A stretch of 64,000 bases of DNA from an uncultured Caryophanales bacterium (GTDB taxonomy: Bacteria; Bacillota_I; Bacilli_A; RFN20; CAG-449): positions 1 to 64,000 of the forward strand of contig CAMCEE010000006.1 in NCBI GenBank assembly GCA_945873815.1, given 5' to 3'. This document shows positions 19,870-50,477 of this stretch, in pieces. The translations under genes and the position numbers were made by a program. The first letter of the stretch is position 1. The number at the start of each line of letters is the position of its first letter. The notes beneath the pieces were generated by a model. That model worked only from the letters and a program-made list of their open reading frames with translations, did not search any database and was not told where the DNA came from.

Positions 19870-19883
19870 CTATTCTTTCAATA

Positions 19884-19960
19884 TGGTGCCGCGTGTGCCG
19901 TCTGGCTCGAAACTTTTTCCTACAAAAATAGGCAATAAATTGGTATTATTTGTTAGAAAT
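19884..19960 (-). repeat. 75-bp cassette-associated repeat, copy 1 (divergent)
   Basis: Plus-strand text runs TGGTGCCGCGTGTGCCGTC, then CGAA, then an AT-rich part containing GGCAATAAA. It aligns along its whole length with 21299-21375 and 50403-50477 but is the most diverged copy. It lies 18 bases downstream of the stop codon of the minus-strand gene 19979-20281. Confidence 0.6.
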
Positions 19961-21154: not shown

Positions 21155-21250
21155 AATCTTTTCCTCCTAGATATAATATCACAAGTTATGTCCACTTTTT
21201 GTACATAACTATATTTTATAGTAAATAATAAATAGAAAACAGCATAAAAA

Positions 21251-21281
21251 AATAGTGTAACACCATAGGGTGTCCACTATT
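21251..21281 (-). terminator. Hairpin repeat B, copy 1
   Basis: On the minus strand AATAGTG and CACTATT pair, enclosing a second short stem (ACACC/GGTGT), followed by seven T. It is a good terminator for the minus-strand gene 21398-22174 and its 75-bp repeat. Nearly the same 38-base text recurs at 22497-22527. Confidence 0.75.
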
Positions 21282-21298
21282 CGGACTTTCAAGAAAAT

Positions 21299-21375
21299 TG
21301 GTGCCGCGCGTGCAGTCCTGCGCGAACCCGATTCTAGCAAAAATTAGCAATAAACCTCTATTGATTATTGAAAAT
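21299..21375 (-). repeat. 75-bp cassette-associated repeat, copy 2
   Basis: Shares GTGC.GCG...TGCAGTC, GCGAACCCGATT and AAAAATTAGCAATAAACC with copy 3 at 50403. A GC-rich end (TGGTGCCGCGCG) can form a small stem with CGCGAACC. It lies 22 bases behind the stop of the chimeric gene and 17 bases before the terminator hairpin. Confidence 0.75.
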
Positions 21376-21397: not shown

Positions 21398-22174
21398 TTA
21401 TTCTTCCAGTATTGCACTAATAATATCTTCTAGTGACTTTATGCAATCAAGAATCTCCTCAAATCTCGGATAATTACCATATATCATTGCTCGCATCTTC
21501 TCATAATCCCTATTTAATTCATTTATGTTGTGCTCTGCAGGAAAAAGCTTTATTTTTCCTTCTTTTGCTAAATCATATTTAGCCCATCTTCTAGGATAAA
21601 ATCTTTCTTTAAATTCAGCAACTTTATATAATAGTTTCATATTACTGATTGCAGTAATATGTAAATTTTTTTGAACAATGCGATATAAGTCATAATAATG
21701 TCTAGAATATCTTGTTGGAATTATTGAACCATCAGGTCTATTAGCTTCTTTAAATTTCTCACCATCAAAATCTATCGCCAGAAAAAAAGTATATTTGCAT
21801 TCAACTATAGGATATATGCCTAACGATGTTTTTCCTTGTAAATGTTTAAAATATGTATTCTCATCTAAAGGAATGTAAGTTTCATTGGGACATTCTTTAC
21901 ATTGTTTATATTTTTTAAAATCACACAAAATAGAAAACCTATTTTTACAAACTTTCGCATATCCTTTCTTACCATCTTTTTGAACATACTTTTCAGCATA
22001 AACATCAGTTCTTCCTTTAAAATAATCCATATAGATTTTAATTTTATCTTTAGTTGAAAAATTGATTAATGGTAAATCATTAAAGCAAATATTATTTTTT
22101 TTAAGGAGTAGCTTCAATTTGATGTTTTCTTCTTTAAGTCTCTTATTTTCTAAAATTAGTTCTTCTAAATCCAT
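21398..22174 (-). pseudogene. Chimera: TOTE-type primase N-terminus fused to AbiEii toxin C-terminus
   Basis: 258-codon intact ORF made of two unrelated pieces. Residues 1-138 match the archaeo-eukaryotic primase of TOTE conflict systems: a coiled-coil N-terminus (LEELILENKRLKEEN), FKGRTDVYAEKY, a Cys pair in CKECPN, HLQGKTSLGIYP, and the first catalytic hDhD motif in FLAIDFDG. Residues from about 140 match the C-terminus of AbiEii/AbiGii nucleotidyltransferase toxins: EANRPDGS, RYSRHYYDLYRI, RFYPRRWAKYD and DYEKMRAMIYG.YPRFEEIL. The primase lacks the rest of its active site and the toxin lacks its whole nucleotidyltransferase core, so neither activity is expected. No AbiEi partner or TOTE helicase is present. 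Junction near nucleotide 21757. Confidence 0.7.
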
Positions 22175-22456: not shown

Positions 22457-22496
22457 TCAACGATTCACTGATATATTTCAAAAACATCTACAAAAA

Positions 22497-22527
22497 AATA
22501 GTGTAACACACTAGGGTGTCCACTATT
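22497..22527 (-). terminator. Hairpin repeat B, copy 2
   Basis: Second copy of the AATAGTG/CACTATT hairpin, nearly identical to 21251-21281, again followed on the minus strand by seven T. No intact minus-strand gene precedes it now, so it looks like the leftover terminator of a lost cassette. Confidence 0.65.
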
Positions 22528-22540
22528 CGGATTCTTATTT

Positions 22541-22716
22541 ATAAATGACAAAGTAAGATAAATAATATAAATGTTGAACTATATTTTAAGCATGTTTTAG
22601 AAAATATCCATTTTGATAGCGTTGATTCCTTAATTCTGTATTTGAATGAAATAAAGAAAAAAATTATAATGCTAGTCCAATCCCGCCTGCGTTATTTGGC
22701 GGATAAATACAAATAA
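22541..22716 (+). other. Orphan 3' reading-frame fragment
   Basis: Plus-strand frame without a usable start, ending in TAA directly before hairpin repeat A copy 2. It encodes about 50 residues (NVELYFKHVLENIHF... LRYLADKYK). It looks like the tail of a lost gene; I cannot name the family. Confidence 0.25.
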
Positions 22717-50371: not shown

Positions 50372-50402
50372 AACCGAACATAAACGTTCGCATATTCTCA
50401 CA

Positions 50403-50477
50403 TGGTGCAGCGTATGCAGTCTAGTGCGAACCCGATTGTTTCAAAAATTAGCAATAAACCATTATTAATTATTGAAA
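50403..50477 (-). repeat. 75-bp cassette-associated repeat, copy 3
   Basis: Plus-strand text TGGTGCAGCGTATGCAGTC, then GTGCGAACCCGATT and AAAAATTAGCAATAAACC, then ATTATTGAAA. Closest to copy 2 at 21299. It lies six bases behind the stop codon of the ATPase gene and about 32 bases before that gene's terminator. Confidence 0.75.

What the first reader, a model, noticed from the sequence alone, without database searches (positions are those of the whole stretch)
21398..22174. Intact ORF joining a TOTE primase fragment to an AbiEii toxin fragment
The frame is uninterrupted for 258 codons, yet residues 1-138 are TOTE-type primase (through the first DFDG catalytic motif) and residues from about 140 are the AbiEii C-terminus. 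Two conflict systems have been spliced in frame. Either it is recombination debris that stays open by chance, or the fusion is kept for some function such as a decoy or regulatory remnant.
Basis: partly seen in the sequence, partly recalled or inferred. Interest (0 to 1): 0.6.

Follow-up and report, generated by a model that had tools for sequence, protein, structure and literature searches.

The report
Chance fusion of two broken genes
An open reading frame in an AT-rich bacterium is the front of one broken phage-defence gene joined in frame to the back of a broken toxin gene; it is most likely recent recombination debris with no function, and so essentially ordinary.

Summary
ORF 21398-22174 (-) is 258 codons long. 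Residues 1 to about 141 are the N-terminus of a TOTE-type primase-helicase, up to and including DFDG (135-138). Residues from about 142 are the last third of an AbiEii nucleotidyltransferase.

The same joint was found nowhere else. Every match in 395 class and 279 order genomes is one parent or the other, as separate genes or remnants. Phages, plasmids, viral contigs and genome contigs add no second copy.

Neither active centre survives. The TOTE part stops just after its first catalytic motif. AbiEii has lost motifs I-III and its antitoxin. The joint lies among other debris: a truncated, frameshifted winged-helix fragment ends 6 bases upstream, and an IS66 remnant and 40-nt direct repeats flank it.

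Openness means little: an in-frame join of two coding frames is open by construction. All 13 and all 23 strongly conserved residues are still present, so the fusion is probably young. Best reading: a recent fusion pseudogene without function.

The parts
21398..22174 (-). Chimeric ORF, 258 aa (fusion pseudogene)
21752..22174 (-). TOTE primase N-terminal part, residues 1 to about 141 (coiled-coil-like lead plus first part of the AEP domain)
   Evidence: Pfam AEP-TOTE E 9.8e-28; 54.9% identity to an 886-aa TOTE protein, L064:4626-7286
21761..21772 (-). DFDG, first catalytic motif of the AEP domain (residues 135-138; motif role recalled)
   Evidence: translation
21743..21754 (-). Junction, residues 141-143; TTTAAAGA of the TOTE side meets (C)AAGAAGC of the AbiEii side
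   Evidence: (relatives' DNA on both sides)
21398..21751 (-). AbiEii C-terminal part, residues about 142-258, holding only the motif-IV-like RHYYD (158-162)
   Evidence: PADLOC AbiEii E 1.7e-30; 60.2% identity over 108 aa to a 338-aa AbiEii, L004
22181..22429 (-). Debris: C-terminal winged-helix fragment (82 aa) of a PDC-S72-like protein, frameshifted at its 5' side; its stop codon is 6 bases before the chimera's ATG
   Evidence: PDLC05078 residues 14-82 = profile 305-374 of 377, E 7.1e-10; frames
22492..22531 (-). 40-nt hairpin plus T-run repeat, copy 1 (where the winged-helix fragment ends)
21246..21285 (-). 40-nt repeat, copy 2, 95% identical to copy 1
21294..21369 (-). 75-nt genome-private element just 3' of the chimera's stop
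22555..22714 (+). Remnant of an IS66 transposase C-terminus
   Evidence: Pfam PF13817 E 0.0081, below its cut-off; DNA 84-86% identical to copies at own C3, C4 and congener G003

Best explanation
A fusion pseudogene. Illegitimate recombination, probably through a few bases of shared sequence (AAGA or AAAGA), joined codon ~141 of a TOTE primase-helicase gene to about codon 229 of an abiEii toxin gene lying downstream or brought alongside. Everything between the two points was lost: the rest of TOTE, the antitoxin gene abiEi, and the catalytic part of AbiEii. The join happened to be in frame, so a 258-codon ORF remained. It does nothing now and will decay like the winged-helix fragment beside it. 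Shown: the two parents, the joint, the missing motifs, the debris context, and its absence from the other genomes searched. Inferred: the mechanism of joining, its youth, and the lack of function.
For: Parents and joint. Single occurrence: own genome 1 match. Relatives: 8 of 58 genomes match; class: 47 of 395; order: 39 of 279; own genome counted in each, and the sets overlap. Outside the own genome each match is one parent only. Missing parts: AbiEii motifs I and II (catalytic) and III are each needed for toxicity (PMC3985639, passages read); the joint falls after the WEKxTILH stretch that I equate with motif III, and no AbiEi lies upstream. Debris: frameshifted fragment 6 bases upstream, IS66 remnant, direct repeats on both sides. 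Decay of this family is common: 8 of the 28 AbiEii-half rows outside the own genome have a frame under 300 aa or an internal stop (some may be cut by contig ends). In the own genome a second abiEii is cut to 109 aa next to an IS200-type transposase. Youth: 13 of 13 and 23 of 23 columns conserved at 90% or more are unchanged. Under neutral drift the ORF would keep its frame with probability 0.51 at 1% and 0.14 at 3% substitutions per site (simulation, substitutions only).
Against: The frame is intact and all strongly conserved residues are kept, which purifying selection would also give. In 8 genomes that hold both parents, none has them on one contig, so the supposed neighbouring arrangement was not seen. 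The parents of the exact sequence are not in hand; microhomology is read from relatives of about 60% identity or less. Rate tests are mixed: on the AbiEii half the chimera's terminal branch is longer than the median (0.568 against 0.353) and it has more unique first- and second-position changes than L004 with L090 as third (35 against 12) but fewer than L091 with L005 as third (18 against 24). On the TOTE half its branch is shorter (0.367 against 0.428).
Confidence: 0.87

Rival explanations
1. Assembly chimera: two real genes were wrongly joined by the assembler, so the fusion does not exist in the cell.
For: The joint is known from one assembly only; the genome is in 39 contigs.
Against: The shared sequence at the joint is about 4-6 bases, far shorter than usual assembly words (inference). 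No second TOTE or related AbiEii template exists in the assembly. Contig C6 continues for kilobases on both sides.
Confidence: 0.06
2. A kept fusion acting as a decoy, inhibitor or regulator: the coiled-coil and half AEP domain would bind TOTE partners or a phage target, and the AbiEii tail would titrate an AbiEi-type antitoxin or a target RNA.
For: Open frame and full retention of conserved residues; the genome holds an intact AbiEi/AbiEii pair on C27.
Against: No other copy of the joint; no TOTE gene elsewhere in the own genome. AbiEi and AbiEii are reported not to interact (type IV; PMC3985639). The C27 AbiEii belongs to a different profile (PDLC02288, not PDLC02289). No Shine-Dalgarno-like stretch before the ATG, unlike two window genes that have GGAGG, though many TOTE relatives also lack one. 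The predicted structure is of low confidence at and beyond the joint.
Confidence: 0.04
3. A true two-domain protein family not yet catalogued, of which this is the only member sampled.
For: Only one genome per species was searched; most strains are not held.
Against: Both halves are incomplete domains, cut inside their folds (profiles 1-102 of 230 and 198-302 of 309). In A4 the relatives' rows overlap by only a few columns at the joint.
Confidence: 0.03

Closest known systems
TOTE conflict system AEP primase (Pfam PF22548), long primase-helicase proteins of about 870-1000 aa
   Same: Residues 1-141, including the N-terminal lead and DFDG; 54.9% identity to the closest relative
   Different: Rest of the primase domain and the whole helicase part are absent; no system neighbours
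AbiEii toxin of the AbiE type IV toxin-antitoxin system (Pfam PF08843, PADLOC PDLC02289)
   Same: Residues ~142-258 equal the last ~115 residues; 60.2% identity over 108 aa to the closest relative
   Different: Motifs I-III and the antitoxin gene are missing; only the motif-IV-like RHYYD is left
Fusion pseudogenes in decaying defence islands (general kind, recalled)
   Same: Fragments of several defence-type genes piled up between repeats and insertion-sequence remnants
   Different: Nothing of note; here the join happens to be in frame

Membership tests
TOTE primase | Match to the AEP-TOTE profile over the whole domain | tested here: not met
   Significant (E 9.8e-28) but only profile 1-102 of 230
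TOTE primase | First AEP motif (DFDG-type) | tested here: met
   Residues 135-138
TOTE primase | Remaining AEP motifs and fused helicase | tested here: not met
   Homology ends at residue ~143; relatives run on for hundreds of residues
AbiEii toxin | NTase motifs I and II (hG[G/S]x15DhD) | tested here: not met
   The N-terminal two thirds are absent; motif definition from PMC3985639
AbiEii toxin | Motif III (lysine) | tested here: not met
   Joint lies after WEKxTILH; equating this with motif III is my reading
AbiEii toxin | Motif IV (+DxxD type) | tested here: inconclusive
   RHYYD at 158-162 has H where the published pentad has D
AbiE type IV TA system | Antitoxin abiEi directly upstream | tested here: not met
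   Upstream is a PDC-S72-like fragment; L004 has a gene directly upstream of its abiEii, which I read as abiEi
Conserved fusion gene | Same joint in at least one other genome | tested here: not met
Conserved fusion gene | dN/dS below 1 across the joint among homologues | not testable with these tools
   No homologue of the joint exists in the held data

The most novel reading that the evidence does not exclude
The 258-aa protein is made and kept as a regulator: an inactive TOTE/AbiEii chimera that binds a shared target or partner and damps conflict systems carried by the cell or by incoming elements.
Probability: 0.04. Interest if true: 0.5.

Novelty: new member of a known kind. Interest (0 to 1): 0.12.

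Why it matters
Chiefly as a caution: an open, confidently annotated two-domain ORF can be recent debris, and domain scans alone would list it as a primase or as an AbiEii toxin. It also marks a spot where accessory genes of this genome break and rejoin, next to repeats that occur beside other accessory genes of the same genome.

Tried and rejected
Considered and rejected: (1) one continuous family across residue 140. A few rows cross the joint: one search gives 4-188 and 4-186 (L029, L035; TOTE frames of 869 and 867 aa; 11-143), one search gives 121-249 (L025) and 102-249 (L036); one search gives 121-254 and 124-252. All are single-parent genes with loose ends. In plasmids one row spans 31-210 (H4, 25% identity). 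Its DNA is a frameshifted TOTE remnant, and the second half alone gives no significant match there (best E 0.69). (2) A mobile cassette bounded by the 40-nt repeats: suggested, but copies elsewhere lie beside a tRNA-Gly and a Fic gene, so the repeat may be only a shared terminator. (3) Integron attC for the 75-nt element: no match to the canonical core that I recall. The two tyrosine recombinases in the genome have frames of 305 and 308 aa, Xer-like in size; no integron integrase profile was run. (4) An RNA family: nothing meaningful at E up to 1.

Led nowhere: the genome-contig scan with the protein and the viral scans gave no relatives. The 22-row alignment A3 misplaced the TOTE rows and was replaced by A4, for which I chose 12 of the available relatives. 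AlphaFold on A4 gave mean pLDDT 58.7, pTM 0.35, and under 50 at 123-158, 171-215 and 230-232; the alignment is shallow (2 rows for the AbiEii half), so this is weak evidence and no fold search was run. Searches of the paper library for TOTE found no paper on that system, so TOTE statements rest on Pfam's name and recall.

Full report
The ORF. Frame 21398-22174 (-) encodes 258 aa from an ATG. Pfam finds AEP-TOTE at 43-144 (E 9.8e-28) and AbiEii at 157-243 (E 3.7e-4, just under the gathering score). PADLOC finds PrimPol at 38-144 (E 1.9e-23) and AbiEii at 141-254 (E 1.7e-30, profile 198-302 of 309). NCBIfam adds only a weak CRISPR-type PrimPol match.

The joint. Relatives fetched from the order and class were laid codon by codon at the joint. 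On the TOTE side they continue, for example as FKD or FKE, into the rest of the primase. On the AbiEii side they read WEKxTILH-xEANRP or close to it. The chimera reads DFDGEKF-KEANRPDG. In the 13-row alignment A4 the 10 TOTE rows end and the 2 AbiEii rows begin within a few columns of each other. The DNA there (AAATTTAAAGAAGCTAATAGACC) fits both a TOTE-like TTTAAAGA and an AbiEii-like CAAGAAGCTAAT, a shared stretch of about 4-6 bases. The true parents are not in hand, so this is an inference from relatives.

One of a kind. The own genome has 1 match. 8 of 58 relatives, 47 of 395 class genomes and 39 of 279 order genomes match, own genome counted in each; the sets overlap. In one search the 45 rows outside the own genome divide into 28 AbiEii-half and 17 TOTE-half rows. 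The few rows that run past the joint are single-parent genes. A scan of genome contigs and one of viral contigs confirmed no relative. Phages gave 1 record (AbiEii half) and plasmids 287 records, none covering 80% of the query (40 of the 287 plasmid rows were listed). The one listed plasmid row with wide cover across the joint is a broken TOTE gene without an AbiEii half.

What is missing. AbiEii needs NTase motifs I-III and motif IV; mutations in each abolish toxicity in the system studied (PMC3985639, passages read). The chimera keeps only the last ~115 residues and a motif-IV-like RHYYD, and has no AbiEi upstream, where a relative has a gene that I read as AbiEi. The TOTE half stops after DFDG, at profile position 102 of 230. 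Neither half can be expected to be active (inference).

Surroundings. The chimera's ATG is 6 bases from the stop of an 82-aa fragment that matches the last 70 positions or so of PDC-S72 (that this is a Fic-type C-terminus is my recollection). Its upstream frame is shifted at a run of A and ends at a 40-nt repeat. Beyond it lies an IS66 transposase C-terminal remnant (weak by profile; its DNA is 84-86% identical to copies in the own genome and a congener). On the other side come a 75-nt repeat and a second copy of the 40-nt repeat. The ABC-transporter genes beside it have DNA-level matches in congeners; of the debris only the repeats and the IS66 remnant do, not the chimera. On contig C4 of the same genome another abiE pair has its toxin cut to 109 aa next to an IS200-type transposase. 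Broken AbiEii genes are thus usual here: 8 of the 28 AbiEii-half rows are short or contain a stop, some perhaps cut by contig ends.

Is it kept? The chimera retains 13 of 13 (TOTE half, 19 homologues) and 23 of 23 (AbiEii half, 32 homologues) columns conserved at 90% or more (duplicates L064, L065 and L089 dropped, and L026, with an internal stop, left out). Simulated neutral substitution leaves the frame open in 0.51 of cases at 1% and 0.14 at 3% divergence, so the fusion is either young or constrained. The relative-rate tests are mixed and do not separate these: a longer than median branch on the AbiEii half, a shorter one on the TOTE half. Retention of residues that served two now-destroyed active sites is more simply explained by youth. 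No Shine-Dalgarno-like stretch precedes the ATG, whereas two window genes checked have GGAGG; several TOTE relatives also lack one, so this says little. AlphaFold on A4 gives low confidence, under 50 at 123-158 and over much of the AbiEii half, with a shallow alignment.

Route of formation. A single deletion would need TOTE, abiEi and abiEii in line on one strand. Of 8 genomes with both parents (G265, G372, G397, G444, G446, G558, G575, G579), none has them on one contig, so the precursor was not seen. The AbiEii half probably carried its own 3' flank: the intact AbiE pair on C27 has the same 75-nt element at its 3' end.

Verdict. The best explanation is a young fusion pseudogene in a decaying accessory region. 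It has no demonstrated relative with the same joint, and no evidence of function.

Noticed in passing
window 21294-21369, 19878-19954, 50398-50473 (-); G000 C27:3754-3831, C4:41109-41182; weak C4:38254-38335 and L060:2331-2370: A ~75-nt hairpin-prone element, 5 strong and 2 weak copies in this genome, each on the same strand as, and within about 30 nt of the stop of, an accessory-type gene (the chimera, a 100-aa ORF, an AAA/DUF4143 gene, AbiEii, a 566-aa gene, two Fic genes). 0 of 7 congeners; in the order only one further match, inside a coding gene; 0 viral contigs and 3 chance-like hits in genome contigs. Possibly a private 3' recombination site or REP-like element.
   Followed up: partly
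window 21246-21285, 22492-22531; L060:2285-2338; L061:3315-3370: 40-nt hairpin plus T-run repeat, 4 copies; one directly follows a tRNA-Gly and precedes the AbiEi/AbiEii pair on C27.
   Followed up: partly
L086:8912-11344 (G000 C4): 810-aa protein with BspA-type leucine-rich repeats followed by an N6/N4 DNA methylase domain, in an accessory-gene cluster with RhuM and Fic genes.
   Followed up: no
L086:2688-4161 (G000 C4): AbiEi followed by an AbiEii cut to 109 aa, next to an IS200-type transposase.
   Followed up: no
window 22555-22714 (+): IS66 transposase C-terminal remnant with near copies at own C3 and C4 and in congener G003.
   Followed up: partly
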